Shown: one piece after another, positions 8,856 through 30,036 of the stretch
Numbering within the stretch: the stretch's first letter is position 1
How the letters are laid out: each line of letters starts with the position of its first letter
Assembly (NCBI RefSeq): GCF_003086295.3
Contig: NC_092048.1
Location: 36,394,425-36,458,424, forward strand
Source of the DNA: Arachis hypogaea
Taxonomy: Eukaryota > Streptophyta > Magnoliopsida > Fabales > Fabaceae
Direction: 5' to 3'
DNA: 64,000 nt
Made by a program: the position numbers and the translations under genes
Notes under the pieces: generated by a model
Databases searched by the model: none
Told to the model about the DNA's origin: nothing
The model's input: the letters and a program-made list of their open reading frames with translations, nothing else

Positions 8856-9145
8856 CATTGCTAATTGTTGTTATTAATTATTCTAAAATATTAAAATTTG
8901 AATTTTTGATATTATATCTATATTATTAGTTAACATAAATATTTTCATTTGTTGTATTTATTGGATAAAATTTTATGTCAATTTTTTATTATCTATTATA
9001 AAATAGAATATGTACTTCTAATAATAATAAGTTTATGTGAATTAGTAATTATCATGGTTAATTTAAATTGAATACGTCTAAAACTTAATGTAATCTTAAT
9101 AATATAATATCTTAACAATTTTTGTAAACAATAAAAACATCAAAA

Positions 9146-9225
9146 TAGCTCAAATGGCATAATCTTCTCATACTCAATTAAGAGGTTGCGGGTTCGAGTC
9201 TCCTATCTTTGGTAAAAAAAAAAAA
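9146..9225 (+). repeat. tRNA-derived short repeat (SINE-like), copy 1
   Basis: The segment has an A-box-like TAGCTCAAATGG, a B-box GGTTCGAGTC about 40 bp later, and then a poly-A run. This is the layout of an RNA polymerase III promoter from a tRNA-related SINE head. It is too short and too degenerate to be a functional tRNA gene, since no proper acceptor stem pairs. Confidence 0.6.
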
Positions 9226-9247
9226 CATCAAAAATGCCAATGAGTTA

Positions 9248-9330
9248 TAGCTCAAATTATATAGTCTCTCCATACTCAATTAAGAGGTTGTGGATTCGAG
9301 TATCCTATCTTTAGTAAAAAAAAATAAAAA
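9248..9330 (+). repeat. tRNA-derived short repeat (SINE-like), copy 2
   Basis: A second copy lies about 100 bp downstream in the same orientation and shares TACTCAATTAAGAGGTTG with copy 1. Its B box is damaged (GGATTCGAGTA) and its A box has lost the GG. A poly-A tail follows. Tandem placement suggests local duplication or repeated targeting. Confidence 0.55.
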
Positions 9331-10243
9331 CATCAAAATAATATATCCTTTATTCAGTTTCTATAAGTAAAAGAAATTTAAAAATTACTAATATTTTTTA
9401 GTTCATATATAATAAATTTAGCCAATATATAAAAAAGATAACAAAAAATTTAAAAAACTATGAATTATCCCTAGTAATTACTCCAAATTAAAGAGAACGA
9501 AATTTCTAACAAAAAATCTATTAATTCTAGTTAGTACTTAACAAATAAATCAGCAATTTAATTTCGTTAATCTAAAAAAATATTGACAAAAAAGTTAACC
9601 AATTTTATAAAAATAAAAATCAATGACCAAAAGAATTTTTTATTGAGGTTGTCATTATTTTTTGAAGTAATTATTAAAAGTTGTTTAAGTTTATTTTTTA
9701 AACAATAAATATTATAAAAAAATTTTAAATATTAAAATATTAATATTTTAATAATTTTAATTATTAATCTTAATTATAAAAATATATAATATATATTAAT
9801 TAAAATGAACCGTTAAAATTAGATTGTTCCGTTAACATTTGAAAATTTTCCAAATTTATATGTGGCTCAAGTGCATGGATAACAAGCTAAGGATAAAGGG
9901 CCGTCAAGGAATTGTGTTGAACATCACATTATTGTGCTGCGTACTTGGAAATAATGCAGCATATATACCAATCAAACATAACACGTGACACATGAGGGTG
10001 TAGCCTGGCTTTATGCAGCAGCCCGTGGATGGGTTATGGCCAACGTGGGTCAATATAAAAAAAAGTCCATTTATAACGATTCAGGGGAGTAAAGATATTT
10101 TGAGACAATAATTTCACTATGGAAGAAACCGTATGGTTATTTATGGTCTACAGCTCACGCCTCACGGGGGTTAATTCCATTCTCGGTGCGAGTGTGACTC
10201 AGTGACTGAGTGTTGGTCAACAAATGATGGTTTAAAAAGAAAT
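9331..10243. other. Intergenic DNA, no gene seen
   Basis: AT-rich to about 9850, then a more mixed stretch with ACGTG and CACGTG-like motifs. No ORF with recognisable content and no element ends. Confidence 0.4.
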
Positions 10244-10379
10244 GGAAGACAAAAAAGCACCGTTAGTTCATTTGGAATAAATCACTCCATAACATATTGA
10301 GATATTCAAATTTTTTATAATTTAAATATCAGAAATGATCGGAAAAACAAAAAAGCAGCGTTAGTTCATTTGAAATAAA
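10244..10379. repeat. Host tandem duplication (97-98-bp unit), left part, flanking the viral insertion
   Basis: Unit 1 runs 10244-10341. Unit 2 begins at 10341 with the same GGAA-ACAAAAAAGCA start and continues to TTGAAATAAA at 10370-10379, where the viral sequence interrupts it. The rest of unit 2 resumes at 17751. Units 1 and 2 differ at only a few positions, so a tandem duplication of host DNA pre-dated the insertion. Confidence 0.75.
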
Positions 10380-10502
10380 GAAAATTATATGGTACAGATC
10401 TAAATCTGTACAGATTTAAAGATTTGTTTACTTAAACCACATTTTCTAAAGCCACACTTTGCATTTAAAATCGTAGCTCTCCACAAAGAAAAGCGTCACC
10501 TA

Positions 10503-10922
10503 ATGGAAAAAAGTAAATTAGAAGATTTAAGAGAAGAAATAATTAAGTTATCAAAATTAATAGATCAAAAATTAATGATTTTAACTAATGTTAACTGTAA
10601 TGACACCGAATTCTTAAAATCAATACAAAATGATTTTTCTCAAAATCTTTATTTTACTATAAGTTTTATTGAAGGACTTCAAAAACCTGAAAAAACTTAT
10701 TTTTTACACAGAATTTCTAAAAAATGTTACCATGGAAATGATTCCCCACATTTTTATCATACTTTTAACCCACAATTAAATTTTATAGTAGATATGCTTG
10801 AAGAAATATTAGTATCCATAAAATTCCAAAGAAATAAGGAAAAAGAGAATCACAAAGAAGAAAAATTTCAAAATATAATCAACATAACAGATTTAAAAGT
10901 AAAACCACCACTAAAATTATGA
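10503..10922 (+). CDS. Small viral ORF upstream of coat protein (ORF II/III position)
   Basis: This is a 139-codon intact ORF, the first in the linear insert. The N-terminal third is a charged helix rich in K, E, L and I, likely a coiled coil. The middle has aromatic and histidine residues, and the C-terminus is basic. I do not recognise a domain. Its place directly before the coat protein matches ORF II/III or the A-C ORFs of soymoviruses, some of which may be virion-associated or transmission factors, but function cannot be assigned. Its TGA at 10920-10922 overlaps the coat protein ATG at 10919 (ATGA), a coupling expected for reinitiation on polycistronic pregenomic RNA. No signal peptide or membrane segment is visible. 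Confidence 0.7.
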   Translation: MEKSKLEDLREEIIKLSKLIDQKLMILTNVNCNDTEFLKSIQNDFSQNLYFTISFIEGLQKPEKTYFLHRISKKCYHGNDSPHFYHTFNPQLNFIVDMLEEILVSIKFQRNKEKENHKEEKFQNIINITDLKVKPPLKL

Positions 10923-12269
10923 ATATTGAAGAAAAATTAGAAGAAGTTACAATGCTTTTTAAACAATTAAAAATGGCTCAAGAAAATAATATTATGGAAC
11001 AGGGTTTTCAGATAGAAGAAGAATTAGTAAATTCTGAAAATATAGAAAATGAAGAACACATCCTAGATTATTCAAGTGACGAAGAACCAGCAATTCCAAT
11101 ACAAGTAAAAAATGAAGCTGGAACATCTAAGAATAATCAATCTCAATTTAAATGGGAAACAGGTTTTGATAATTATGCTTTTAAAAAAGGGTTTATAAAT
11201 AAAGATTCAAAATATACAAAAATACCATCAAAATACGTTCCTAAAATCCAGGAAATGGAAGGAGAAAGAATGCTCGATTTAGACTGTAAAAAGAATGAAA
11301 AAGAAATTTTCGAAAACTGGTTGAATTCCTTCTTATTAGAAGCCTTTACTAATCCAAAACTTAGCGAATTGTCTGGAAGAGACATTTGGAATTACATAGG
11401 GTTTCATACTAAAGGAACTATAAGAGATTATATGACATCAATAGAAAACCAAATAATAGAAGAATTAGCAACAAAAACCACAGCTTATGATAAGATATTA
11501 TATATAATGATGATTCTATATAAAGAATTTTTTGGAAAAAAATATTATAGATCATAGACAAGAAGTTTATAATAAAGAATATCAAGAAGCAAAAAACCAT
11601 TTAGCTAATATTCAGATATATGATCTATGTAATGTGGAGTCTTATATATGTGAATATAGAATACATTATTACAAATTAAAAGAAGAAGATAAAAATCATT
11701 ATCTTAGTATGTATATAACAAAACTTCCATATCCTGCTAATGAATTTATAATGGGAAGATTTATAAGAGAAATAAATAGAGGAACAATTGAAAGTAACTT
11801 TGGTGGAGCAACCTCTGCAATAAGAGAGGAAATAAAAGAACGTTGTATGCAAGAAGCAACTCAAAAAAGATTTGCAAATATAATTAGAATTTGCTGTCAA
11901 GATAATGAAGAAATACCTCAAAAATATGGTCTTAATAAAAATTTTTAAAGAAAAAGAAAATATCAATTTAGAAAAAGAAAATACTATCCAAACTGGAGAA
12001 AAAAGAGATATTTTAGAAGGGAAAATAATAATAAAAACAAAAGACAAAGAAATAACTATTGCCCGAATAAAAAAGAAAATTGTAAATGTTGGTATTGCCA
12101 AGAAGAAGGACATTATGCAAATGAATGTCCGAAAAAGAAGGATAAAAAGGATCTTACTAAACAAATAGAAATTGCTAAGTCTTGTTTCATGGAACCTTTA
12201 GAGGAATCTAATGATAACTTAGACTATATTTTTGAATATGTCTCGGAAACAGACTCAGAGACTGAGTAA
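10919..12269 (+). pseudogene. Pararetroviral coat protein (capsid), frameshifted
   Basis: The reading frame spans about 450 codons, the usual size for this family. An acidic, Glu/Asp-rich N-terminus (10919-11150) is typical of the caulimovirid coat precursor. The capsid core follows, then a strongly basic stretch, and a CX2CX4HX4C zinc finger at 12087-12128 that binds nucleic acid. There are two breaks. The frame changes in the overlap 11532-11557, and a TAA at 11946-11948 interrupts the second frame just before the basic region; the same frame is open again to the TAA at 12267. As it stands only truncated products could be made. The start overlaps the preceding ORF (ATGA), and the end overlaps the Pol start at 12238. 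Confidence 0.85.
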
Positions 12270-14229
12270 TAATGCTACATTTATTACTATAAAAATAACA
12301 GAAAAGTTTATAAATGCTTTCATAGATTCTGGAGCAACACAATGCTTTGCTAGTTCAAATATGAAACTTGATTGGAAAAAATTAAAGAAACCATTAAGAG
12401 TTAGAATAGCTGACAAATCAATACATAAAATTGACCAAAAAGTAGAGATGGTTGAAATTTTTATTCAAAATTATAGGTTCATTGTTCCATCTATATATAT
12501 GTTAGATTCTGGAATGGATTTTATCATAGGAAATAATTTTTTAAAGCTATATCATCCATTCATTCAAGAATTAACATATATAGTTTTAAAAGCTCCATAC
12601 GATTCTTCAATAAATCAAAAATCAAAACGTATAAAAATACCGACTACTACTATAGATAAGATCTTAAAATTTAAAATATTTTCTATATTAGAGGCATGTT
12701 ATTTAAATTTATACTTTCAGATAAATATCCCAAAAAATAATCTTGAAATAAAGATAGAAGAACTTTTGGATGAAATTTGTGCTGAAAATCCTTTAGATAT
12801 TAAAAATACAAATAACGAATTAGTAAGTATTAAATTAAAAGATCCTACAAAAGAGATAAATGTTCCAAATAAAATTCCTTATTCCGCAAGAGATAGAGAA
12901 GAGTTTTCACTAGAATGTAGAGATCTTTTGGAAAAAGGAATTATAAGATTAAGTAAAAGTCCTCATGCGGCTCCAGCCTTTTATGTCGAAAACAATAATG
13001 AAATTAAAAGGGGAAAACGAAGAATGGTTATTAACTATAAGAAGATGAATGAAGCAACTATTGGTGATGCTCATAAACTTCCAAGAAAAGATTCTATTTT
13101 AGAAAAAATCAAAGGAGCAACTTAGTTTTCATCTCTTGATGCAAAATCAGGATATTGGCAACTTCGTTTAGACGAAGAAACAAAGAAATTAACTGCTTTT
13201 ACTTGCCCAACAAAAGAATCAACAAGTGTGTTACTCTATGAGTGGAATGTATTACCATTTGGATTAAAACAAGCCCCAGGTATTTATCAAAGATTTATGG
13301 AAGAAAATCTAAAAGAGTTAAATGAATTTGTTTTAGTGTACATTGATGATATACTAATTTTTACAAAGCAGGATAAAGAAGATCATCTTCAAAAATTATT
13401 AATAGTTTTAGAAAGATGTAAAGAAAAAGGATTAGTTCTTAGCAAAAAGAAAGCAAGAATAACAAAACAAGAAATAGAGTTTCTTGGATTAATTCTATCC
13501 ACTCAAGGAAAGCTAAAACTTCAGCCAAATGTCCTAGAAAAGGTAAATTTATTTCCTAATAAAATAGAAGATAGAAAACAATTACAAAGATTTTTAGGAT
13601 GTATAAATTATATTTCTGATCAAGGATTTTTAAAGAATATAACAGAATACACTAAAAGCTTATTTCCAAAAATAAGTACTAAAAAAGAATGGAAATGGGA
13701 TGAAAAAGATAGTATGCAAATTCAAAAGATTAAAGTATTATGTGAAAAACTTCCAGAACTTTATATTCCAGAAGAAAACGACTACTTAATAGTAGAAACA
13801 GATGCTTCAGACATAACCTGGTCAGGATGTCTAAAAGCTAAGAAAGCTATAAAAAGTTTAGAACAAGAAAAAGAATCACTAGATTCTAAATATTCCCCAA
13901 AGAAATTACTTTACAGGTATATTTCAGGGACTTTTACTCCAACAGAATAGAGATATACCACTCATGAAAAGGAAACTCTAGCAGCAATTAAATCTCTTAA
14001 GAAATGGAAAATTGATTTACTACCCAGAGAATTTACATTAAGGACAGATTCAAGTTACCTAACAGGTTTCATACGATATAATTTAAAAGTTGATTATAAT
14101 CATGGACGATTGGTAAGATGGCAATTATTTTTATTACAATATCCAATAAAAATTGAATATATTAAGGGTGACAAAAATGTTATTGTAGATACATTAACAA
14201 GAGAATGGAGTTCGTCTACAACGCATTAG
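12238..14229 (+). pseudogene. Pararetroviral Pol: aspartic protease, reverse transcriptase, RNase H
   Basis: One frame of about 663 codons, normal length for a soymovirus-type Pol. The first ATG is at 12238, overlapping the coat protein end by 32 bp. The protease active site D-S-G-A is at 12325-12336. The RT region carries the Y-I-D-D catalytic box at 13339-13350, preceded by an L-P-F-G-L-K block near 13250. RNase H follows, with acidic residues near 13800, 13965 and 14045. Two in-frame TAG codons break it, at 13123-13125 (inside the RT fingers) and 13948-13950 (inside RNase H). There is no integrase domain, as expected for a plant pararetrovirus. All catalytic motifs that I can see are still present, so decay is recent or slow. 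Confidence 0.92.
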
Positions 14230-15551
14230 ATCAAGAAATTCAAAAATATGAGTAAGAACTCGAAAAATGCAAGCATTGTCAGCAAATAAGGACACAGATC
14301 CAATCTCTCAAGAAGGCCATCGAAGCAATGAAATCAACACAACAAGCAAAACCATCAGAGTTCAGCCAGCTAAGCGTGGTGGACAAATCAGGTGAAGAAA
14401 AAATTTCAGAAAATAAAACAATTGCTGAAATCATTAAAAAATCCACTCAAGATAAAAAATATTATGTAATTTATAATGGCCCTATGAAAGGAGTATATGA
14501 TGCCTGGGAAAAAGTAGCACCATTCACACACCAGTCAAAGATAATTCATAAAGGAGGGTTCCTAACACTGGAAGAGGCAAAGAAATCCTTCAAGGAATAT
14601 GAAACTCTCCATCCAGAGCAAACCCTAAAAAGAGCAGATAAAGCTCCAATTCAAACCCAGAGAACAGGGATAATAAGAAACATTCCTACAAGGGCTGAAA
14701 TCAAGGAAAAGAAAAGGGTCTGTAGATCTAATCTCAGAGAAACCCTTAACATAGTCCTGAATTGGACTGAAGAAAAAAGGGCAATTTTGGGATATTATCC
14801 TGTTGCCAAAGAATAGCTAACAAAGCTGGTTATATTTCCAGATGCTTCCCCATCTGACACCTATCAGTTTTTCCAGTATGGATTAATTGATACAATCTTA
14901 ATTTTTAATGATCTAAAAATTATTAGTGAGTTTCCTGCAGGATTCGTTGATGCAGTAAAGAGATTTAAAAATATGATTGACAATGTAAATCCAAGGGATA
15001 TATCCCTAAAATTTACAAACAGTCAACCTATTTTTAATGAAGAAGAAGAATGCTTGGTTCCAGCACACCAAGTAATATTCATGTCCGTCTTCCCAGGAAA
15101 TTTTCAACCAATTGATCAGATTCAAGATTTAACAATTTACAGTCATGAAGGAAGGCTAGCCAGCACATTGGCAAGGGTCTTTGAAAGAACTCAAAAAATA
15201 ACGAAGGAATCTCACACAAGGATTAATTATAAAAGTAGAAATACTCTGCTTGTGTCCAGTAAAAGAAATAAAATTGAAGAAAGAGAGATGAGACTCTTGG
15301 TAGAATCAGCATTCTACAACTTATCTGGACTTTTAGAAAAGCTCCCTGAAGGGATAAAGAGGAATCTCTGCTATTTGATAAAAGACAGAGAAGACCACAA
15401 GTGCCAGCTATGTGTCTCAGAGATATCTGAAGAAAGCAATAATGAAACGGAATCAACTCACATGATGAAGGAAGAAGACAATACATCTGACGGTCACATG
15501 ATAAAAGAAGAGGACAGCACATCTGAAGTATCTCTCAACATTATTGCATAG
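14205..15551 (+). pseudogene. Translational transactivator / inclusion-body protein (P6-like)
   Basis: An ATG at 14205 overlaps the Pol end by 25 bp and opens a frame of about 448 codons. The central part around 14457-14510 has the Y-Y-V-I-Y-N-G-P and G-V-Y-D-x-W pattern followed by a K-S-F-K-x-Y element. This is the RNase H1-like N-domain fold found in the transactivators of Caulimovirus and related genera. Family members allow reinitiation on the polycistronic RNA and form the inclusion bodies. Two in-frame stops break it: TAA at 14253-14255 and TAG at 14814-14816. The C-terminal part from 14973 is a long open stretch ending in an acidic tail with two M-x-K-E-E-D-like repeats near 15460-15520. 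Confidence 0.85.
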
Positions 15552-15700
15552 TGACGTAAGCACTTAGGTCATAGAGCACGAACAATGTAGCTGGTGAAAG
15601 AGAACAAACAATGACGTAAGCAATGACGTCATAAGAAGGGTAAGGATGGGAATTGTCCATCAAACCCAACTATTATAAATAGGCTGCTTAGGCAATTGTA
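15552..15700 (+). promoter_or_regulatory. Viral pregenomic RNA promoter (35S-type)
   Basis: Three TGACG motifs occur at 15552, 15612 and 15624. The last two are spaced 12 bp apart in a TGACGTAAG...TGACGTCA arrangement, closely like the as-1 element of the CaMV 35S promoter that TGA bZIP factors bind. TATAAAT at 15674-15680 is the TATA box, so transcription should start near 15705. The elements are uninterrupted. In this linear copy a transcript would cover the leader, movement protein, small ORFs and primer site, and then enter host DNA at 17751. Confidence 0.85.
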
Positions 15701-15944
15701 AAAGCATCAGACAATAGGAAGCAGGAGGCTAAGAGTACTCATATGCTAGGAGAGCAAGGAGGAAGCTGCCGAGGCGATCCTATAGTCTGAGGAAGAATCC
15801 CTTTAGGGAAAAATAGTTCTAAACTCCCCTCTGGAGTTAGTATCTACAATCTCCCCTCTGGAGATAAAAACCCCTTATGTAAAATATACTGAATAAAGGA
15901 AGTTTTTCTCCAGAAAGGTACATCTTCATTCTAGTCTTTTAATT
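15701..15944 (+). other. Viral RNA leader
   Basis: A 240-nt non-coding leader lies between the inferred start and the movement protein ATG. It has a repeated CTCCCCTCTGGAG motif (near 15825 and 15852) that can form small hairpins, and short upstream ATGs. The poly(A) signal lies inside it, as in caulimoviruses, where the signal is bypassed on first passage and used after a full circle. Confidence 0.6.
15876..15900 (+). terminator. Viral polyadenylation signal
   Basis: AATAAA at 15892-15897 follows an upstream TTATGTAAAATA element, about 190 nt after the inferred transcription start. Spacing and layout match the caulimovirid poly(A) signal. Confidence 0.7.
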
Positions 15945-16862
15945 ATGAATTATTTAGAAAGTTTAGAATTAACAGAAGAATCTGATTATTATAGATTAAC
16001 TGCTTTATTAGATAATGAAAAGCAGGCTATTCTAAAAACAGAATTAAATCTCAAATCAAATGAAAATTTTAATAAACAAAATCTTTTAAAAGAAGTTTTT
16101 AACAGAAAAAATATAATATACTATGGAAAAATTCAACTTGAAGCTCCTATAAAAATAAAATCTGCCAATGGAGAACTTGAAATAGCTTTGATAAATAATG
16201 AAGAATTGAGTAAACAGATTGAGAAAATTAAGGATCAACAAAAAAGATCTAAAATTGGATGGATTCATATTAGTACTATACAAGTCTTAATCAAATCTAC
16301 ATATATGAAAGGAATTAATTCACCAATAAGTTTAGCAATCTGTGACAAAAGAATTACTGATGACCCAATAGATCAAATAATTGGAATTGTTCATGGAAAT
16401 TTGGCAAACGTAAATGTTAAATTTAATGCCCATCTTGGATATGCTATACCTTTATCAACTGAAAATCTTGGAAGATCTGTAAGTTTGGCTTATAAATTTC
16501 ATAGAAAGAATCTAATGGAACAAGATGATGAACCATTTTCAATTACATATGCAATAAATTATGCTTTAACAAATAGCCATCATAGTATAATATTTAAAAA
16601 CAGAGAAAGAATTTATGTCGATGAATTATTTCAGAAAATTGTAAAAACAGAAATACCAAAATATAAAGCTATTGAAAACTCAGTTCTATTACTAAAAGAA
16701 CCATCAGGAAAATTAGTTTCATCAAATTTTCAAATAAGAGAATCTAAAATTAATAGTCCTTTAAGTTTATCTAAGTTAAAGATTAAAGAAGAAGATTCTG
16801 AAATAAAAGAATTAACAAAAAAGGTCGAAAAATTAAATGAAACCCTAAATACTAAATTATGA
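15945..16862 (+). CDS. Viral movement protein (30K superfamily), intact
   Basis: An uninterrupted 305-codon ORF that starts at the first good ATG after the leader. The sequence fits the 30K-type movement proteins of Caulimoviridae: an N-terminal region, a central beta-rich core with a G-W-I-H-I-S-T-I-Q-V-L-I-K-like strand near 16255, L-A-I-C-D-K-R-I near 16335, and G-x-V-H-G-N-L...V-K-F-N near 16390-16430. A charged, coiled-coil-prone C-terminus follows. Such proteins form tubules through plasmodesmata for virion passage between cells. Length equals that usual for the genus. It is the only long viral gene here without a stop. Its TGA (16860-16862) overlaps the ATG of the next ORF. Confidence 0.85.
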   Translation: MNYLESLELTEESDYYRLTALLDNEKQAILKTELNLKSNENFNKQNLLKEVFNRKNIIYYGKIQLEAPIKIKSANGELEIALINNEELSKQIEKIKDQQKRSKIGWIHISTIQVLIKSTYMKGINSPISLAICDKRITDDPIDQIIGIVHGNLANVNVKFNAHLGYAIPLSTENLGRSVSLAYKFHRKNLMEQDDEPFSITYAINYALTNSHHSIIFKNRERIYVDELFQKIVKTEIPKYKAIENSVLLLKEPSGKLVSSNFQIRESKINSPLSLSKLKIKEEDSEIKELTKKVEKLNETLNTKL

Positions 16863-17095
16863 CAATAAATAAAGAAGAAATATATGTAACTTATCAAGAT
16901 AAGAAACAAGAGCTCTTTGAAAGAGAAAATCGTTTGAATTATTTGCAGTTCTCTGAAATAAATCAAAGAGCATTTAAAGCTCTAAAAATAATCTATGACA
17001 AGTTAAAAAGAGAAGTTGAAGAGTTAGAAAAATTAATAGAATCTCTAGAAAAAAGTGATGAAGCAATGATAGAATTTGCAGAAATTCTAAAATAA
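16859..17095 (+). CDS. Small viral coiled-coil ORF
   Basis: A 78-codon ORF that begins with an ATGA overlap with the movement protein stop. It is nearly all charged helix with L/I heptads (K-L-K-R-E-V-E-E-L-E-K-L-like), so a coiled coil is likely. In this position soymoviruses have small ORFs of unknown or dispensable function, and the virion-associated protein of caulimoviruses is also a short coiled coil. No signal peptide. Intact; function not assigned. Confidence 0.6.
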   Translation: MTINKEEIYVTYQDKKQELFERENRLNYLQFSEINQRAFKALKIIYDKLKREVEELEKLIESLEKSDEAMIEFAEILK

Positions 17096-17098
17096 ATA

Positions 17099-17308
17099 AT
17101 GAAGCATACAAAGATTGAAAGACCAGAAAATAAAATAAAAAGAAAAAGAGCGAAAAAATTAAAAAGTAAAATAAAGGAGTATAAAAGGGAATTAAATAAT
17201 CTTCAGATCGAAATTGATGACCTTATAATAAAAAGGATAGAAATAAGAATAAATATAAACAAGTTGGAGTTAAACTTAAAAAATTTTGCCTGGAAAACCA
17301 TATTATGA
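17099..17308 (+). CDS. Small viral basic coiled-coil ORF
   Basis: A 69-codon ORF starting three bases after the previous stop codon. It is very Lys/Arg-rich at the N-terminus, then has a leucine/isoleucine heptad region (N-L-Q-I-E-I-D-D-L-I-I-K-R-like). Tight spacing again suggests reinitiation. Its TGA overlaps an ATG at 17305, but that downstream frame closes after two codons, so the coupling to the next ORF looks broken by a small indel. Function unknown. Confidence 0.55.
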   Translation: MKHTKIERPENKIKRKRAKKLKSKIKEYKRELNNLQIEIDDLIIKRIEIRININKLELNLKNFAWKTIL

Positions 17309-17513
17309 CTTAAAAGAATTAAAGCTGTTAAAAGAGAAAATGGAGAATGAGGTTGAAAAATTAAAAAGATATTTAGAAACAACAGAAAGTGTAGAAATAA
17401 AAGAAGTTTTTGAAGATTTGAAAAAATATATTAAAGAAAAAGACAAACAGATAAAAGATTTTATAAACAATAATCCATGCAAAAAAGAATATTATAAACT
17501 AAAACAAGATTGA
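17286..17513 (+). pseudogene. Small viral coiled-coil ORF with lost or shifted start
   Basis: An open frame of 75 codons, again charged and helical (E-K-L-K-R-Y-L-E-T-like, ending in a Cys-Lys-Lys stretch). The coupled ATG at 17305 is out of frame; the first in-frame ATG is 17340, leaving 57 codons. Either a short indel separated the start from the body or the protein starts internally. Unknown function; composition matches the two ORFs before it. Confidence 0.45.
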
Positions 17514-17539
17514 AAAACTATAAAAATGAAATCAGAATT

Positions 17540-17641
17540 ATGAATACTAGTAATAATAGAGATGGTCAACATCTTCAAATCTATACACATTATAAACATA
17601 AAAGAGTTAAAAATTGGTATCAGAGCCAAGTTAACGATTAA
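17540..17641 (+). CDS. 33-codon viral ORF containing the primer-binding site
   Basis: An ATG at 17540 overlaps the TGA (17541-17543) of a five-codon mini-ORF that starts at 17526. The frame runs to a TAA at 17639. Codons 25-30 fall on the tRNA-Met primer site. As I recall, the primer site of soybean chlorotic mottle virus lies in a short ORF (Ib), and this looks equivalent, though shorter. It may be a chance ORF, but the ATGA coupling supports it. Hydrophilic and basic; no domain. Confidence 0.4.
   Translation: MNTSNNRDGQHLQIYTHYKHKRVKNWYQSQVND
17615..17628 (+). promoter_or_regulatory. tRNA-Met primer-binding site of the pararetrovirus
   Basis: TGGTATCAGAGCCA is complementary to the 3' end of plant initiator tRNA-Met, the primer for minus-strand DNA synthesis in Caulimoviridae. 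It marks the conventional position 1 of the circular genome. The right end of the insertion lies about 122 bp further on. Confidence 0.9.
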
Positions 17642-17750
17642 GGGTAACACTTTCTCTTTAAGCAACACTTTTAGTGATACGCTTTTAAACCAAATAAAAA
17701 TAAAAATCTGTAAATCTGTACCAAAATGCATCTGTACACTAGATGGACCC

Positions 17751-17820
17751 TTGAAATAAATCACTCCATAACATATTGAGATATTCAAATTTTTTATAAT
17801 TTAAATATTAGAAATGATCG
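17751..17820. repeat. Right part of host tandem unit 2 (viral target site)
   Basis: The sequence continues unit 2 of the 97-98-bp duplication, beginning with TTGAAATAAA, the same ten bases that end the left flank. It matches 10272-10341 (unit 1) with two mismatches over 70 bp. Confidence 0.8.
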
Positions 17821-21041: not shown

Positions 21042-21582
21042 TGTTCATACCCTGGGTCGAGCTACCCGACCCGGAATGATTTGCAACAAAGCGACCGACC
21101 TCTTCAGGTCAGACTACTCGACCTCTTCTAAAGAGCTCGGCCAAATCATCAGGAAAGCCCAAATAAAGGGCCCAAATAGAGGAACACGACCCAAATCCAA
21201 AGGCGATCCAAGCCTATAGAGATAAAGGCAGTTCCCTTGAAGATAAGCTGACTTCACCCAAAATAAGATAAGATAAGATAAGATAACTAACTTATCTTAT
21301 TAGAAAGGTCAGCCCACACTACTATAAATACACTGGAGTACCCAGGTATAACTCATACTCTGATTCTACATAAAACCTGCTTAACACCCATGCTAACTTA
21401 AGCATCGGAGTCTCTTGCAGGCACCCCCCACCCTCCGGTGGCCAAGGATCAGCAGTGTGGCAAGTCCAGTGAGTCGAACACGACAGCTCCGGCCGCCACC
21501 AGCCAGCTGGACACGCCGTCTCCGACTTGTATCGAAGATCTCATCTGAGATCGACCTCCAGTTTCAGGTAACCCTCGGAACA
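21042..21582 (+). repeat. 5' LTR of element B
   Basis: Starts TGTTCATACCC and ends CGGAACA. It has an (AAGAT)n tract near 21264-21290 with one repeat fewer than the 3' LTR, and a CTATAAATA core promoter near 21322. Confidence 0.9.
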
Positions 21583-21600
21583 TTGGCGCCGTTGACGGGG
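21583..21600 (+). promoter_or_regulatory. Primer-binding site of element B (tRNA-Asp type)
   Basis: TTGGCGCCGTTGACGGGG directly follows the LTR. Apart from one base it is the complement of the 3' end of plant tRNA-Asp, the usual primer for Tat/Athila elements. Confidence 0.75.
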
Positions 21601-21622
21601 ACCTGGAAGTCATCCCACCACC

Positions 21623-22760
21623 ATGGCGAACAGCCATGACAATGACCACGACTCAGATCTAGAAAACAGAACGCCGCACAAAAATGCGGGCACCACACTG
21701 AAAGATACCCCGGAACCCAACGGAGACAAAAATTTATCAAATCCGGGAGCAATAGAAGCGCTTCAAGATCGCTTGAAACAACTTGAGAAAGAAACCCAAC
21801 AACAACGAGAGATCGAAAAGGATCTACAAAGAGAGGTACGGCGACGTCGAGAATTGGAAGAAAAACTACAGCAGTTAGAAGCCGATCTCAAATCGAAAAC
21901 TCCTCGGACTACTCCTGAGGAAAATTCACGCAAAGAACAAGATCCATTCACCAGGGAAATCATGAAAACCAAAATTCCAAAAGACTTCAAACTCCCGGAT
22001 ATGATTTTGTACGATGGCACCATAGATCCCAACCATCATCTCAGCAATTTCAGAAGCAGAATGTACCTCACCGACGCCTCAGACGCTGTTCGCTGCAAAG
22101 CTTTCCAACAACTCTCACGAAGACAGCAATCAGATGGTTCGACAACTTACCTCCAAAGTCCATCTCAAACTTTGACGACCTGGCCAAAAATTTCCTGGCC
22201 AGATTCTCCATCCAGAAGGATAAGGCCAAGCACGCCCCCAGTTTACTAGGGATCAAGCAAGGAGATCGGGAGAGCCTCCGCAACTACATGGAAAGATTCA
22301 ACAAAACATGCATGGACATACAAAGTTTACCAACAGAGGCTGACATCATGGGACTCATCAATGGCCTACGAGAAGGACCTTTTAGCCAATCTATATCAAA
22401 GAAGTACCCTACCTCCTTAGACGAAGTACAGGAGTGAGCAGAAAAATACATCAACATGGAAGAGAACGCTCGGCTGGGAGAAACCTCAAAATCTAGGGCC
22501 CCTACCGAGACAAAGACAAGGAATCCAAAAGGAAAGAAGATCGACAAGGGGAGAAAATAAAAAAATACCATAATTACACTTCTCTCAGGGTATCCCTAGT
22601 CGACGTATACAAAGAAGTCTGCCATACGGAGAAAATTCCCCCAGCACGGCCACTTAAAGGCAAAAGAGGAGGAGGAAACCGGAAGGAATATTGCGAATAC
22701 CACCGAGTTCGAGGGCACTCCACCAACGAGTGCTTCGACTTAAAAAATATCATAGAAAAA
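21623..22760 (+). pseudogene. Element B gag
   Basis: The ATG at 21623 lies 40 bp after the LTR. A coiled-coil N-terminus (Q-L-E-K-E-T-Q-Q-Q-R-E-like, near 21770-21890) is followed by the retrotrans_gag core (P-K-D-F-K-L-P near 21980, Y-D-G-T-I-D-P-x-x-H near 22010). The frame shifts near 22115 and again near 22545, with a TGA at about 22436. The zinc-binding C-x-x-H...G-H...C motif lies near 22695-22735. Gag would form the cytoplasmic virus-like particle. The product from the first ATG stops at 22249, so it is non-functional. Confidence 0.8.
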
Positions 22761-23522
22761 TTGGTGAGAGAAGGAAGATTAGATCGATTTCTGGCCACCC
22801 GAGATGATGACCAAAGAAAGAGACGAAGGGACGAAGATGACGGACGAGCTGAGCGATCGCCTCGGACACCAGAAAGACACGTCCACATGATACACGGCGG
22901 ATTCGCAGGAGGTGGGATCTCCAAATCATCCCGCAAAAGATATCTCAAAGAAGTATATCATGTCAAGGGAAAGGAGGAAGCACCCGACATCCCTGCGATA
23001 ACATTCACTAAAGAGGACGCATCCGGCATCATCTCGGGACACGACGATCCCATGGTCATCACTATCATACTGGCAAACGCTAATCTACACCGCACATTAG
23101 TAGACCAAGAGAGTTCTGCCGACATCTTATTCAAGACAGCCTTCGATAAACTCGGCTTAGACGAAAAGGAGCTTAGAGCATACCCGAACAATCTGTTCGG
23201 ACTAGGAGACACCCCGGTACAACCACTAGGATACGTATCGCTACACATAACCTTCGGAAAAGGGAACCAATCCAGGACCCTTAAGATAGACTACATTGTG
23301 GTCGACGTAAGTTCAGCCTATAATGCCCTAATAGGTCGGACAACACTCAATCAACTCGGCGCAATAGTCTCGACTCCACATCTATGCATGAAATTCCCAA
23401 CTATAGAAGGGATAGCCATGATAAAAGCAGATCAAAAGATGGCACGCCACTGTTATAACGAAAGTCTAAACCTCAGAGGCAGAGGAGAAGAGTTTCATAC
23501 AATTGAACTTGGCAGAGTTTAG
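22761..23522 (+). pseudogene. Element B protease region
   Basis: An open stretch of 253 codons that starts in the gag C-terminus (basic R-K-R-R-R-D-E region) and passes into the retropepsin domain. The active-site block near 23100 reads V-D-Q-E-S-S-A-D-I-L, where the family has D-x-G-S-S-A-D, so the Gly next to the catalytic Asp pair is replaced by Glu. It closes with TAG at 23520. Further stops follow at 23646 and 23760 in the linker to RT. The enzyme would process Gag-Pol; this copy is probably inactive. Confidence 0.75.
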
Positions 23523-23783
23523 CGACGAGAAGAACTCCGTCCACAGCCAGAAGGTGAGACAGAGAAGATTCAGATCGGAGACACCTCGGATAAAACAACT
23601 AATATCGGCACGATTCTAAAAGGAGACTCAAAAGAATTACTGATATAATTCTTACGAGATAATGTTGATCTCTTCGCATGGAAGGCCGCAGACATGCCAG
23701 GAATAGACCCTAAGCTAATGTGCCACAAGTTGGCGGTCTATCCAAGATCTCGGCCAGTGTAGCAGAGACGAAGAAAACTTGGA

Positions 23784-24884
23784 GTGGAGCGATCCCAAGC
23801 TGTGGAAGAGCAGGTACAGGCACTACTGGAGGCAGGATTCATACGAGAAGTCAAGTATCCCCTATGGTTAGCCAACGCTGTCTTGGTGAAAAAATTAAAT
23901 GGGAAGTGGCGAATGTGTACTGATTACACCGATCTCAACAAAGCCTGCCCAAAAGATCCTTACCCACTCCCAAGTATCGACGCTCTGGTAGATGCTTCCT
24001 CCGGATATAGATACCTCTCGTTTATGGACGCATACTCGGGATACAACCAAATCCCCATGTATCCACCAGATCAAGAAAAGACCTCGTTTTTAACACCGAA
24101 AGCAAATTACTACTACATCGTGATGCCTTTCGGTCTCAAGAACGCAGGTGCTACTTATCAAAGGCTGATGAACAAAGTTTTCTCAGACCACATCGGAAAA
24201 ATCATGGAAGTCTATGTGGACGACATGTTAATAAAAACACAAAGCGAAGACACATTACTGTCCGACCTGACTCAAGTGTTCGACACTATAAGGAAGCACG
24301 ACATGCGACTCAATCTTGCAAAATGCACCTTTGCGGTAGAAGCAGGCAAATTCTTAAGTTTCATGCTCACACAAAGAGGAATTGAAGTAAACCCAGATAA
24401 ATGCCAAGCCATACTCAACATGAAGAGCCCCACCTGTGTCAAAGAAGTGCAGCAACTTAACGGGAGATTAGCCGCCCTATCCAGATTCTTAGCAGGGGCA
24501 GAGATAAGATCTCTCCCCTTCTACGCTACTCTAAGGAAGGAAAAGCAGTTCGAATGGACGACAAAATGTGAACAAGCCTTCAAAGACTTCAAAGAATTCT
24601 TAGGACGGCCGCCGATCTTATCTCGACCGCGAGAAGGAGAACCGCTCATATTATATCTCGCAGTGGGAAGCCGGGCAATAGCCTCAGCACTAGTCAAAGA
24701 AGACGAAAGTGGGCAACAACCCGTCTACTTCATTAGCAAAGCGCTACAGGGATCCGAGCTGAACTACCAGAAGATAGAAAAGTTTGCCTATGCTCTCATT
24801 CTAACATCTCGACAACTTCGCCCGTACTTCCAGGCTCACACCATTAAGGTTCGAACCAACCAGCCCATAAAAGGAATACTGTAG
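23784..24884 (+). pseudogene. Element B reverse transcriptase and degenerate gypsy RNase H
   Basis: 366 open codons. RT motifs are all visible: M-C-T-D-Y-T-D-L-N-K near 23915, F-M-D-A-Y-S-G-Y near 24025, M-P-F-G-L-K-N-A near 24125 and the catalytic Y-V-D-D near 24215. The connection domain and the first RNase H follow. In the RNase H the usual catalytic Asp position reads Y-L-A-V-G-S, a loss typical of the Tat lineage, where a second RNase H takes over. TAG at 24882 ends the stretch; the frame is open again right after. Copies the RNA genome into DNA in active relatives. Confidence 0.85.
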
Positions 24885-25934
24885 AAAACAGATTTAGCAG
24901 GTAGAATTTTACAATGGGCAGTAGAGTTATCAGTGTTCGACCTCCAATACGAACCTCGGACGGCCATCAAATCGCAGTATCTGGCCGACTTCATTGTAGA
25001 ATTCACAGATGCTCTGGAAACCCCCACAGAATGGAATCTTTATGTGGACGGCTCTTCAAATAAAACTGGAAGCAGCGCAGGCGTGATAATAGAAAGCAAT
25101 CAGGGAACCCAAGTGGAGCTCTCCCTCAAGTTTGGGTTCTCGGCCTCGAACAACCAGGCGGAATATGAAGCATTATTAGCTGGTTTGAAGCTGGCTAAAG
25201 AGGTTGGAGCTCAAAAACTTAACATTTACAGCGATTCACAAGTAGTCACCTCACAGATAACAGGGAGCTATCAAGCCAAGGACCCTACCATGAAAAAATA
25301 TTTAGACAAAACCAAGGAACAACTCGGACAACTCGGGGAATATAATATCTGCCACATACCCCGCGAACAAAATGCCCGAGCTGACGCACTCTCGAAGCTA
25401 GCCAGCACCAAACCAGGGGGCAACAATAGAAGCCTCATCCAGGAAATACTACAGAACCCATCAATCTCGGAAGAGGGAAAAGTCCTGGCCATAACAAATC
25501 AAGACCAAGGATGGATGACCCCCATAATCAACTACCTCAAAACAGGAACACTCCCCGCAGAAGAAAAGGAGGCAAAGAGGTTAAAAAGGGAGGCACAGTA
25601 CTACACCATCATAAACAACATCCTGTACAAAAGAGGAATCTCAATACCATTTCTAAAATACGTGCCGACCTCCAACATAAAGGAGGTGCTAGAAGAAGTA
25701 CACGGTGACATTTGTGGCAATCATCTCGGAGCACGGGCTCTCGCCAAAAAAGTACTTCGGGCAGGGTTTTATTGGCCAACTCTACAGAAAAAAGCTACAG
25801 AATTTGTAAAGACATGTCCACCATGTCAGAAACATGCCAATTTTCACATCGCCCCGCCAGAAGAGCTCATCAGCGTAACTTCGCCTTGGCCGTTTGCAAA
25901 ATGGGGCCTCGATCTTCTCGGCCCCTTCCCCTAG
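24885..25934 (+). pseudogene. Element B second (archaeal-type) RNase H and integrase N-terminus
   Basis: Same frame as RT. The second RNase H has D-G-S-S near 25050, A-E-Y-E-A-L near 25160, Y-S-D-S-Q near 25230 and A-R-A-D-A-L near 25375, the four acidic residues of the catalytic site. An acidic linker follows, then the integrase zinc finger (H-x3-H ... C-P-P-C-Q-K-H near 25700-25840) and the first catalytic block W-G-L-D-L-L-G near 25905. TAG at 25932 closes it. Dual RNase H is established for the Tat lineage. Confidence 0.85.
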
Positions 25935-26748
25935 GGATCAGGACAAGTTAAATTCCTCATAGTAGGGGTAGACTACTTTACAAAGTGGATCGAGGCAGAG
26001 CCCCTAGCCAATGCCACCGCTCAAAGAAGCCGGAAATTCTTATATAGAAATATTGTCACAAGGTTCGGGGTTCCATATTCAATAATCGCAGACAATGGCA
26101 CTCAATTCATAGATGCAGGCTTCAGAAAACTAGTAGCCGACTTGAATATAAAGCACCAGTACACCTCCGTTGAACACCCACAAGCCAATGGATAGGCCAA
26201 AGCTGCTAACAAAGTCATATTGGCCGGGTTAAAATGGAGATTACAAGATGCAAAGGGAGCCTGGGCAGAAGAGCTTCCACAGGTCCTATAGGCCTATTGA
26301 ACGATGCCACATTCCACCACGAAGGAATTCCCCTTCCGGTTAGCATACAGAATAGAGGCGATGATTCCAGTAGAGATTGAGAAAGGATCGCCTAGAGTAG
26401 TTCATTACAATGAGGGAGCAAACTCCCAACTTCAGAGGGAAGAGCTCCACCTGCTACCCGAAATTCAAGAAAGAGCTCGGATCAGGGAAGAAGCACTAAA
26501 ACGTCGAATGGCTTCCAGATATAATTTAAAGGGTAGTGCCGAGAAATTTCGCGGAGAACGATCTCATCCTAATCCGAAACGATATTGGAACAACTCGACC
26601 AGGAGAAGGAAAGTTGGTAGCAAACTGGAAAGGACCCTACCGAGTTGTAGAAGTACTTGGGAAGGGCTACTACAGACTGTCCGAACTTGATGGACGAGAG
26701 CTTCCCAGATCATGGCACGCCTGCAACCTAAGAAGGTACTACAGCTAG
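25935..26748 (+). pseudogene. Element B integrase core and C-terminus
   Basis: Continues the integrase: T-K-W-I-E-A near 25985 and the second catalytic D in A-D-N-G-T-Q-F near 26090. In the third block (H-P-Q-A-N-G near 26180) a TAG follows, and the catalytic Glu position codes Lys. More stops lie near 26289 and 26298. Then comes a C-terminal region in two overlapping frames (26304-26690 and 26536-26748) that ends with P-R-S-W-H-A-C-N-L. The DDE triad is thus broken; the protein cannot integrate DNA. Confidence 0.8.
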
Positions 26749-27199
26749 AAAAGTAAAAGATCTCACTATTGAATGCACTCTTTTTCCTGAAAAGGTTTTT
26801 TAATGAGGCACCAAGTTGAGACTCAAACACTATTCGACATAAAGGGATGAAAGATTCCCACATGTATATATTTGCACTTTCCTTTGAATAAAATATATAT
26901 TTTAGATATTCTACAAGTATTCAAGATGCATTAATCTGAAGCATTCATCGTCCGATTATAAAGCAACAGATCGGCAGAAAGTGAAAAAACAATTTCACTG
27001 CACGATCACGATAAAGATAATCGTCTGATAAAGGTGAAAACACGATTCACCCAAAAGACAATCTAAAAGATGACAACCACTTTCTACAAATCGGCAAAGA
27101 TGAACACAGAATAATGTAAGAAGTTATCGAAAGTGATCCAAAAAAGAACATGACGAGGTCTTACGGATTGCTAAAATAATAACTTAAAGACTGGCCGAC
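26749..27199 (+). other. Element B untranslated region after pol
   Basis: Non-coding spacer of the retrotransposon between integrase and the tandem repeat block. AT-rich, with an AATAAA at about 26885. No ORF recognised. Confidence 0.5.
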
Positions 27200-27725
27200 G
27201 TTAAGAAGTCGGACCACGTCAACCCAAGTTATAAGTAAACCCTGGAAAGAGGTCTGGCCAACCCTATTAAAGAGGATTACTTTAACTTAGAAGGGCCCGA
27301 CATGACAAAGTCAGCCCAAAATGAAAAAGTTATAAAAGTAGTCCCTGAAAGAGACCTGACAAAGGTCCAAGAAAGAGGACTACAAAAATAACTTAGAAGA
27401 GATCAACCTAACGAAGTCGGTCTCCTACAACAAACAAAGTTATAAAAGTAATCCCTGAAAGAGACCTGACAAAGGTCCAAGAAAGAGAATTACAAAAATA
27501 ACTTAGAAGAGATCGACCTAACGAAGTCGGTCTCCTACAGCAAACAAAGTTATAAAAGTAATCCCTGAAAGAGATCTGACAAAGATCCAGGAAGAGGATT
27601 ACAAAAATAACTTAGAAAAGACCGACTTCACGAAGTCGGACTCCTACTACTAAAAAGTTATAAAAGTAATCCCTGAAAGAGATCTGACAAAGATCCAAGA
27701 AAGAGGATTACAAAATCAACTTGGG
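27200..27725 (+). repeat. Tandem repeat in the 3' region of element B (about 110-bp unit)
   Basis: The anchor TATAAAAGTAATCCCTGAAAG recurs near 27231 (diverged), 27330, 27440, 27550 and 27658, with spacings of about 99, 110, 110 and 108 bp. Each unit also carries an AACTTAGAAGAGAT and GAAGTCGG block. Arrays of this kind in untranslated regions are a known trait of Tat elements and can seed satellites. Confidence 0.8.
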
Positions 27726-28219
27726 GGACCAACTTGAAGAAATCGGTTATAGATCGTCAGGAATACAAGCAAGAGCGAGAAAACCGAAAAACAAGTTAGA
27801 CCCACATAACCACAACAATAAAGGATTCAAGCTACAAAAGTACAAAGCAATCCAAAAAGGTCGAGCTGTAAGGTTCCAACATTCTCAAAAAACAGAAGAG
27901 ATCCCAAGTCAAGCACAAAAAGCATGATATAATCTACAAAGTTATAAAAGCCTCGGAGGCCACCAAAACCTACCTTAAAAAGCTAAGCGAGGTACCTTTT
28001 GTTTTTCAAAAATTAAAGTCGCTAGGTAAGCAATGAGAAAGTGTCAGCAGTTAACAAAACATAAAGAGTTTAAAAAGCCCACAAGCCGAGCCAACTACAT
28101 AAATATCCAGAATAAGTGAGCTAAGGGTCAGAAGACTTTTTATCAGCATCAATCCGAGGAGATGGAGGGCGAGTCTGGAGAGGAACAGCATTCACAGTAC
28201 CGTCATCCCGGTTTAAAAT

Positions 28220-30036
28220 CTAGCAGTCAGGATCAGAAGCGGAAGGGTCGACCTCGGCAGGAACAACAAAAGTCGACACCTTAGCAGAGGACACAAGGGG
28301 AGGTTCGACATTATCATCATCCTCGTCATCAGGAACAATCTTGCCATCCTTGACAACATTATCCAGGCTGAAGAGGGTTAGGTCGGGCTCAGGAGCAATG
28401 ACCCGAACTTGCTCCTTCAGGTTCTCATAAGCAGCAGTCACGCTGCCAACAAGATGACCTTGAAGTTCAGAATAATCTTCCCGGGCACTCTCCAGCTCCC
28501 CCCTCAGGCGCATCACCTCCCGATAGGACGTAACGTAACTATCCTTATGCATCATTGCCGTGTCCTCGGCCAACCGCACAGAAGCTGCCAGAGAAAGGGA
28601 ACTCGCCTTCTCGTTCTCTAGATCTTTTTCCATCTTGGCCACCTTTACCTCGAGCTCCTCCTTCAGCCCCTTCATCCGGTCGAACTCTTGCTTCGCCTCC
28701 TCCATAAATGCTTTGGTGGCATGGAGAGGAAGGTTCTGGGCAGTTCGGTGCAGAGCAGCCCCCATATACACCATCTTTATGCTGTTTCGGGTCATAAATT
28801 CCAAATGATGAAGGATGGACACATCGTCCATAGAAAGGGCACCATAGGGACCGATTTGCTGATCCACAAATTCAATTGCATTAAAATTGGGAGCATCGAG
28901 GTTGAAGGGCTCAACTGTTTTTTGTTTCTTATTGGGAGGAGCGACAGAAGGAGTAGCAGAAGTTGGAAGAGGGTCAGCCAGACGAACTCGGGGAGTGGGG
29001 ATCACCTTCCTCACCCAGGAGAACTCGGCATGGATGGCTTCACACGCACTAGGGAAGATCCCTCCCCGGCCGCCTTAGCCGAGATGTTTTTGGCAGTAGT
29101 CACCTTCTGGGCCCTCTTAAAAGCCTTCATAGATTCATTATTCTTGATCGCCTCTGCAAATAAGACACAACAGTAAGAAATTAAGCTACAAGTCAGAAAG
29201 GCATTCACAAGCAATATAAACAGATAACAAAGGAAACGCAAAATACCCAGCTCAGTTTGAAGAAGAGAGGGATTGGTTAAAAATTTCTTTGTATCAAGAT
29301 AGGGAGATTGACTCCAGTGTTCTTCCAAGACAGCCACAAAAGCTCGCTCAGCCTCATCCAACATTTCCCACGTATACCTGGACACTCTCACATCTTTTTG
29401 CCATTCTAAGGGAAAGGCGGGCTCATCATTCTCATCCAGGAAAAAGGGCCGAGCTCCTTCAACAGCTCGGACCTTGAAAAAGTAGTTCTTAAAATCGTGA
29501 AACAATTCATCAAACATGGAAAAGACCTTCTTTCCCTGGGAAGATCAAAAGGAGACCCAAGCTGCCTTCTTTTTTACTACTCCAGGCTTCGTCAAGACAA
29601 ATAGGTAGAAAAAGAGAGATTGCGAGGCAGGGATACCAAAACCATTACACAACAATTGAAAAATTTTAATGAAACCCCAGGAATTAGGGTGAAGTTGAGA
29701 GGGAGCAACATTACAGGACCATAACAGGTCTGTCTCAAATTCAGTAAAAGGAAGGGTAATACCCAGCTGACCAAAGAAGAAGTCATAAGCATAGAAAAAA
29801 GGGCGATCATTAACAACCCGAGTAGAGAAACAAACTCTCTCCTCAGAAGAGGGAGGGACGAGTTCATAATTCTTCTCATCACCAGGATTACTACAGACCC
29901 TATGAAACTGCCTAAGCTGCGCGCAAAACTCGGAATCAACCAAAGAGACACACATAAGAACCATCGAGTCCACCCAATCGGCCATGCCCTCGGGAACCTG
30001 GGAAGACATCTCTACAACATTATTGCGAGAAGACAT
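28220..30036 (-). pseudogene. Antisense accessory gene of element B (putative gypsy-type transposon domain)
   Basis: It runs opposite to gag-pol. ATG 30036 opens a frame whose core (F-F-Y-A-Y-D-F-F-F, then V-A-P-S-Q-L-H-P-N-S-W) resembles the Pfam 'putative gypsy type transposon' family (Transposase_28). A TGA near 29546 is followed in frame by 29517-29247. A GT-AG intron of 93 nt (29154-29246) is evident from the splice sites and its AT-rich body. A shift near 29012 leads to a 264-codon C-terminal part (28220-29014) with a proline-rich stretch, a long coiled coil and an acidic tail. Function is unknown. Element A carries the same gene, so it belongs to the element family. The Pfam assignment is from memory. 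Confidence 0.7.

What the first reader, a model, noticed from the sequence alone, without database searches (positions are those of the whole stretch)
10380..17750. Nearly genome-length endogenous soymovirus-like pararetrovirus
All core modules of a caulimovirid are present in one colinear copy: movement protein, coat protein with CCHC finger, protease-RT-RNase H, transactivator, promoter, poly(A) signal and tRNA-Met primer site. Gene order, with the primer site after the movement protein and a P6-type transactivator, matches Soymovirus as I recall it. Endogenous copies of most other genera are better known than soymovirus-like ones, so this may be an undescribed lineage. Only about five stops and one frameshift occur in 7.4 kb.
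Basis: partly seen in the sequence, partly recalled or inferred. Interest (0 to 1): 0.92.

Follow-up and report, generated by a model that had tools for sequence, protein, structure and literature searches.

The report
Peanut pararetrovirus family with transposon-like ends
A plant DNA virus genome sits in this chromosome, apparently peanut's, as one of many near-identical copies; most of those sampled start and stop at the same bases and carry a duplicated nine bases of host DNA, which suggests that a jumping-gene enzyme inserted them and not accidental repair.

Summary
Confirmed: window 10379-17750 is one colinear, near-complete soymovirus-like genome with 4 stops and 1 frameshift. RT phylogeny puts it among soymoviruses, sister to Cestrum yellow leaf curling virus. 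An endogenous Soymovirus cluster confined to Arachis is already in print at RT level (PMC9794742), so the lineage is probably not undescribed.

What appears new is how the copies sit in the genome. RT search scored 141 places. Of 20 copies ranked by left end, 19 match from base 10380 and one from 10381; their flanks are unrelated except one duplicated block. Of copies with both ends in view, 16 of 17 (ranked by left end) and 27 of 36 (ranked by RT) carry an exact, copy-specific 9-bp duplication; mismatched pairs give 0 of 270, and 0 of 380 and 4 of 240. The homoeologous locus lacks the virus.

Fixed ends plus a 9-bp duplication point to a DDE transposase of Mutator (MULE) type, not break repair. 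Constraint on RT suggests that reverse transcription also drove spread. The transposase itself is not proven; resemblance to one MULE end is suggestive only.

The parts
10370..10378 (.). left copy of the 9-bp target-site duplication TTGAAATAA
   Evidence: host flanks joined with one copy match the neighbouring host repeat over 107 bp without gaps
10379..17750 (+). whole element: soymovirus-like genome with fixed ends
10379..10434 (+). left end with subterminal inverted similarity to the right end and TACAGAT motifs (3 in 70 bp)
   Evidence: (0 of 285 random pairs reach the score)
10503..10922 (+). small ORF of unknown function before the coat protein (frame open from 10404)
   Evidence: no Pfam family over its cut-off
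10838..12269 (+). coat-protein region with CCHC zinc knuckle, broken by one frameshift and one stop
   Evidence: PF22909 (sub-threshold), PF00098
12223..14229 (+). protease, reverse transcriptase, RNase H, broken by two stops
14256..15551 (+). P6-type transactivator with Cauli_VI domain, broken by one stop
   Evidence: PF01693
15552..15944 (+). promoter, 5' leader and AATAAA region (as-1-like boxes, TATA 15674, AATAAA 15892)
   Evidence: leader fold z -1.27, not remarkable
15945..16862 (+). movement protein, frame open
   Evidence: PF01107; tree
16859..17759 (+). small ORFs after the movement protein (last frame runs 9 bases into the right flank)
   Evidence: no family over its cut-off
17615..17632 (+). 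tRNA-Met primer-binding site (exact 12-mer 17615-17626)
   Evidence: 12-mer present in 28 of 40 copies' right stretches
17695..17750 (+). right end with subterminal inverted similarity and TACAGAT motifs (3 in 70 bp)
17751..17759 (.). right copy of the 9-bp target-site duplication
10235..10369 (.). host repeat of about 98 bp, its second unit interrupted by the insertion; unit one serves as a built-in empty site

Best explanation
The interval is a member of a young, dispersed family made of a full soymovirus genome inserted as a defined unit. Shown: most sampled copies begin and end at the same or homologous bases, most carry their own exact 9-bp duplication, and their flanks are unrelated. Inferred: insertion was by staggered strand transfer of two recognised ends, by a DDE transposase of the Mutator (MULE) type supplied by the host. 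Inferred, weaker (about 55%): the DNA inserted was a fresh reverse-transcribed episome cut at one site in an inverted repeat, so that spread was 'copy by reverse transcription, paste by transposase'; the alternative is movement of integrated copies as DNA cargo.
For: Left end: 19 of 20 fetched copies match from 10380, one from 10381, none continues into virus in 0.6 kb upstream; flanks of 45 copies compared, only one pair (a duplicated block) is alike in register. RT-ranked sample of 40: left match from 10380 in 25, right match to 17750 in 26, both in 20. Exact 9-bp duplication: 16 of 17 with both ends in view in the left-end-ranked sample (two of the 16 are one duplicated block; right edge allowed +-14; null 0 of 270) and 27 of 36 in the RT-ranked sample (17 of 20 at fixed boundaries, null 0 of 380, or 1 of 380 reaching 9 bp if boundaries slide by 2; 10 of 16 in a +-16 search, null 4 of 240). 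Mean mismatch is 0.7 at length 9 but 4.45-6.7 at 7, 8, 10 and 11. Duplications are 90% A+T against 74% in the flanks (27 of them), as in peanut's AhMITE1 (9-bp TSD preferring TTATTTTAA, TIR beginning GGTG; PMC9277781 passages). MULE transposase domains are plentiful: 150 scored places over the cut-off. The virus is absent at the homoeologous locus. RT constraint: changes shared by 4 or more copies are 12 synonymous of 18, neutral model 25%.
Against: No transposase domain was found in the element (14 pieces). The terminal inverted repeat is short and imperfect (43 nt, 74%). The link to a named MULE is thin: one of two copies compared shares 12-13 end bases with some subfamilies, the other copy differs at 2 of those 13; its far end was not reached, so its own duplication is untested; the one fetched soymovirus copy that shares all 13 showed no 9-bp duplication. 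Of 36 RT-ranked copies 8 lack a duplication and one has a mismatch; 4 of 40 lacked an end in view; some subfamilies seem to have other ends. In the left-end sample 11 of 19 RT pieces are broken (9 with stops, one 1-base deletion, one 10-base insertion), and private changes are also richer in synonymous ones than the neutral model (33 of 79), so the model may be off and selection does not separate the two modes cleanly (shared against private p 0.26).
Confidence: 0.72

Rival explanations
1. Ordinary endogenous caulimovirid: viral DNA captured during double-strand-break repair, later copied by segmental duplication.
For: A widely held view in the review PMC10377300 (section 3.1 read); some blocks are duplicated (C4/C14, constant offset and identical flanks).
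Against: Predicts variable ends, (TA)n flanks, rearranged arrays and no constant duplication; found instead are recurrent ends and copy-specific 9-bp duplications in unrelated flanks.
Confidence: 0.05
2. Pure DNA transposition: a soymovirus genome is cargo between MULE-like ends (Pack-MULE-like) and moves in trans without reverse transcription.
For: Ends and 9-bp duplication of Mutator type; one 3.9-kb unit with both ends looks like a deletion derivative; 12-13 end bases shared with one peanut MULE copy; 11 of 19 copies have a broken RT piece.
Against: Signs of purifying selection on RT across groups of copies, primer-site 12-mer kept in 28 of 40, 11 of 13 paired ends are full length (7209-7443 bp, window included).
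Confidence: 0.3
3. Integration by a hijacked LTR-retrotransposon integrase.
For: Retrotransposon machinery and a transposon-derived integrase are named as possibilities in PMC10377300.
Against: LTR integrases leave 4-6 bp duplications and use TG..CA ends (recalled); here 9 bp and mostly GG..CC.
Confidence: 0.05

Closest known systems
Cestrum yellow leaf curling virus (Soymovirus)
   Same: nearest named relative by RT tree; amino-acid identity 61% and 58% for the two RT-region pieces, 72% RNase H, 40% MP
   Different: an episomal virus; here an integrated family with fixed ends; nucleotide identity, the species criterion, was not tested
Endogenous cluster Soymovirus-01 of Arachis (PMC9794742)
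   Same: very probably the same family: 391 RT sequences, only in Arachis (table read)
   Different: described by RT domain; the sections and passages that I saw ('target site' occurs 0 times) mention no fixed ends or duplication for it
AhMITE1 of peanut (PMC9277781), a 9-bp-TSD element
   Same: 9-bp AT-rich duplication, ends beginning GGTG as in some soymovirus subfamilies (passages)
   Different: 205 bp with 25-bp inverted repeats; here a 7.4-kb viral genome with short imperfect ones; that it is Mutator-like is my reading, the word does not occur in that paper
Teratorn (herpesvirus fused to a piggyBac transposon, fish)
   Same: a virus genome that moves by transposase-type integration (recalled; only the title and abstract start of PMC10175614 seen in the listing)
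   Different: herpesvirus that encodes its transposase (recalled); here a pararetrovirus without one

Membership tests
Soymovirus | RT groups with named soymoviruses | tested here: met
   33-row clade 100/100 with all 9 rows that I labelled soymovirus (the two Chrysanthemum yellow edge viruses were put in the group by me)
Soymovirus | separate MP, CP, PR-RT-RH and P6-type transactivator ORFs | tested here: met
Soymovirus | primer site in the small-ORF region after the movement protein | tested here: met
   comparison with PMC6482551 passages
Soymovirus | seven or eight ORFs | tested here: inconclusive
   small ORFs after MP are not assignable; ORF number from the ICTV profile PMC7660458 (whole text read)
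Soymovirus | isometric virions, episomal infection | not testable with these tools
   -
Mutator-like (MULE) transposon | target-site duplication of about 9 bp (recalled hallmark) | tested here: met
   27 of 36 and 16 of 17
Mutator-like (MULE) transposon | terminal inverted repeats | tested here: inconclusive
   43 nt at 74% in the window copy, above 285 random pairs; 12-13 bp shared with one end of one MULE copy
Mutator-like (MULE) transposon | encodes a MULE transposase (autonomous members) | tested here: not met
   no such domain in the 14 window pieces
Endogenous caulimovirid captured by break repair | variable ends, no constant target duplication | tested here: not met

The most novel reading that the evidence does not exclude
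A caulimovirid that lives as a genome-resident mobile element: reverse transcription makes new DNA circles, and a host Mutator-type transposase recognises one site in them and pastes them in with a 9-bp duplication, giving an integrase-less pararetrovirus a true proviral stage.
Probability: 0.4. Interest if true: 0.95.

Novelty: new variant of a known kind. Interest (0 to 1): 0.87.

Why it matters
The review PMC10377300 (section 3.1) calls the mechanism of caulimovirid integration speculative and offers break repair or borrowed retrotransposon machinery. A family with recurrent base-exact ends and a 9-bp duplication makes one specific answer testable: end recognition by a Mutator-type transposase. 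It would explain how an integrase-less virus reached high copy number in one plant genus, and it gives a search rule (fixed ends, 9-bp duplication) for other abundant endogenous caulimovirids.

Tried and rejected
Rejected: contaminant (141 scored RT places; virus-free homoeologue); florendo/petuvirus affinity (with the limits named); a plain 10-bp duplication (the tenth base is a base of the left end, A in the 21 copies of the window type seen, A or G); a LINE-type insertion (no 3' poly(A)); shared RT stops as proof that broken copies multiply (the two shared ones are C>T and G>A changes that cut across other groupings).

Led nowhere: viral contigs gave no relative; PHROGs nothing useful; tRNA scan empty; leader fold not unusual; the far end of the candidate MULE was not reached, the two copies match over more than 13 kb, so a larger duplication is not excluded. 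No paper linking endogenous caulimovirids to MULE ends or constant duplications was noticed in the listings (held library only: no bioRxiv, few subscription journals; most listed papers not opened). Host identity comes from no tool: 2.557 Gb with 20 large contigs fits Arachis hypogaea as I recall its chromosomes; that C1-C10 and C11-C20 are its two subgenomes, and C3 the homoeologue of C13, is recalled too. The neutral expectation rests on mutation weights that I chose; the dN/dS (mostly 0.02-0.25, one pair 1.23) is from 8 copies ranked by protein score and so is biased low.
Full report
Observation. The window holds one colinear, near-complete caulimovirid genome. Stop-to-stop frames and Pfam give, in order, a small ORF, a coat-protein region with CCHC finger, protease-RT-RNase H, a Cauli_VI transactivator, a promoter and AATAAA region, a movement protein and several small ORFs with a tRNA-Met primer site. 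I count 4 stops and 1 frameshift; the movement protein is open. The order is that of a circle opened about 118 nt downstream of the primer site.

Kinship. Two unnamed environmental proteins are 97-98% identical (MP; RT); among named viruses Cestrum yellow leaf curling virus is the closest for each of the three RT-region pieces (58-72%). A maximum-likelihood tree of the unbroken RT piece (window plus 70 of the 335 fetched proteins; I chose 72, and two were dropped for short coverage) puts it in a 33-row clade with all rows labelled soymovirus (100/100) and with CmYLCV (100/99); Caulimovirus rows are one group by themselves. The program warned of long branches at the outgroup. The movement-protein tree (17 rows, CmYLCV the only named virus) agrees weakly: a 7-row set with CmYLCV and a Rutidosis protein at 100/100. 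No row labelled florendo-, petu- or badnavirus was available, so those refuters were tested only indirectly.

Host. This fits cultivated peanut, Arachis hypogaea, as I recall it; no tool gives the name. In PMC9794742 (sections with Tables 1 and 3 read) cluster Soymovirus-01, 391 RT sequences, occurs only in three Arachis species; the lineage is therefore probably known at RT level.

Copies. A search with the 274-aa RT piece lists 141 scored places, the window among them, all 96-100% identical (cut by score, so a lower bound, and a few lie in duplicated blocks). By my count of that table 119 of 141 have no stop in the matched stretch; ranking by protein score favours such copies.

Fixed ends. 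The left end of the window copy was searched alone: 40 scored places of 856 candidates. I fetched the upstream DNA of 20: 19 match from base 10380 and one from 10381, and none continues into virus within 0.6 kb. Of 45 left flanks compared (these 20 and 25 of the next sample) only one pair is alike in register, a block duplicated on C4 and C14. The query began at the end itself, so copies cut further in would rank lower. Right ends of the same 20: 12 match to 17750, one to 17749, four to 17712, three not in the fetched stretch. Of 17 with both ends in view, 16 have an exact 9-bp duplication (right edge allowed +-14); mismatched pairs give 0 of 270; the 17th has a 9-base duplicate in a shifted register.

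Sample not chosen by ends. From the RT list I took 40 copies and fetched both ends. The left match starts at 10380 in 25, the right match ends at 17750 in 26, both in 20. 17 of these 20 have an exact 9-bp duplication at the fixed boundary and one more has one mismatch; mismatched pairs 0 of 380, or 1 of 380 reaching 9 when the boundaries may slide by 2; lengths 7, 8, 10 and 11 do not fit. Of 16 others with both ends roughly placed, 10 have a 9-mer duplication within +-16 bases; mismatched pairs 4 of 240. Four had an end out of view. In total 27 of 36. Against: two copies with canonical ends and six others show none; some copies seem to have other ends. Virus past the end was seen in one copy only, which has a second copy nearby.

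The window copy itself. Host flanks joined with one copy of the duplication match the neighbouring unit of the same 98-bp host repeat over 107 bp, 91.6%, no gaps. The homoeologous place on C3 keeps both flanks (87% and 90%) and holds no viral match at E 1e-5 in 3.2 kb. C3 carries there its own 595-bp insertion, beginning GG and ending CC, with the 9-bp duplication TTTGAAATA, one base off the window's TTGAAATAA.

End anatomy. The two ends of the window copy have a 43-nt imperfect inverted similarity, score 21 against a maximum of 14 in 285 random pairs from the element, and 6 of its 7 TACAGAT motifs lie in the outer 70 bases at either end. Copies begin GGAGAA, GGTGAA, AGAAAA or the like and end GGACCC, GGCCCC or GGCACC among others. 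In the top 40 left and top 40 right ends of the window type, 38 of 40 each lie on C11-C20; among the 20 RT-ranked copies displayed, 9 of 9 of the GGAGAA type lie on C1-C10 and 7 of 10 of the AGAAAA type on C11-C20. Subfamilies thus appear to have multiplied mostly separately in the two subgenomes.

Which machine. A 9-bp AT-rich duplication with such ends is what peanut's AhMITE1 shows (PMC9277781 passages) and what Mutator-like elements show in general (recalled). Duplications are 90% A+T, flanks 74%. The genome search scored 150 MULE domains over the cut-off; some may be domesticated genes. In one family, of which I compared two 98.6% identical copies, the match begins at GGGTGAATTTTAG in one copy (two bases differ in the other), 1.1 kb before an 842-aa FAR1-MULE-SWIM frame. 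Three RT-ranked soymovirus copies begin GGTGAATTTTAG, one of them with a further G; two of the three have the 9-bp duplication, the one with the further G has none. A 12-base match at a fixed place has a chance of about 1e-7, but several ends were compared and the far end of that MULE was not reached. I take it as suggestive.

Is reverse transcription still involved? Among 19 copies ranked by left end, not by RT, plus the window, changes in the RT piece shared by four or more copies are 12 synonymous, 5 non-synonymous, 1 stop; private ones 33, 41, 5; a neutral model gives 25% synonymous. One of 20 fetched stretches had no RT match and was dropped. Shared against private does not differ significantly (p 0.26), and private changes also exceed the model. 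11 of the 19 RT pieces are broken. So RT seems to have been constrained in the lineages that multiplied, which favours copying by reverse transcription, though not decisively. The primer-site 12-mer is exact in 28 of 40 right stretches.

Age. The window copy has 9 private changes in 822 RT bases and its nearest sampled copy is 2.3% away; with a rate of about 8e-9 per site and year (recalled) this is of the order of one million years, a rough guess.

Conclusion. The finding is real, its virology is right, and its supposed novelty as a lineage is doubtful. The new point is that copies of this pararetrovirus family were inserted as a defined unit with transposon-like ends, most likely by a Mutator-type transposase.

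Noticed in passing
L157 (C3:34.389 Mb), homoeologue of window 10378: A 595-bp insertion (GG..CC) with 9-bp duplication TTTGAAATA sits one base from the window's insertion point: two separate insertions at one spot.
   Followed up: partly
window 9145-9332: Two tandem units (84% alike) with a GGTTCGAGTC box and A-rich tails, SINE-like by eye.
   Followed up: no
window 48236-49104: An 869-bp imperfect foldback (self-complementary at 84%).
   Followed up: no
window 21042-31604: Ty3-like element between direct repeats 94% alike (21042-21582, 31060-31604); further retroelement fragments at 55-63 kb.
   Followed up: no
G000 C5 and C15, also C4 and C14: Several matches have identical coordinates on C5 and C15 or a constant offset on C4 and C14: duplicated blocks, so such copies are not independent.
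   Followed up: partly
window 15458-15526: A 36-bp tandem repeat (1.9 copies) at the end of the transactivator region.
   Followed up: no
P0234-P0245: Twelve environmental proteins are 97-98% identical to a Trifolium repens RT of the soymovirus clade (P0234 in the tree): another endogenous or circulating soymovirus of clover.
   Followed up: no
C15:33253685-33257573: A 3.9-kb unit with both element ends, possibly a deletion derivative.
   Followed up: no
L103/L104 (C7:11567742) and L119/L120 (C149:17174): Copies whose left end differs (AGCCAAGTCTC...) and for which no 9-bp duplication was found.
   Followed up: no
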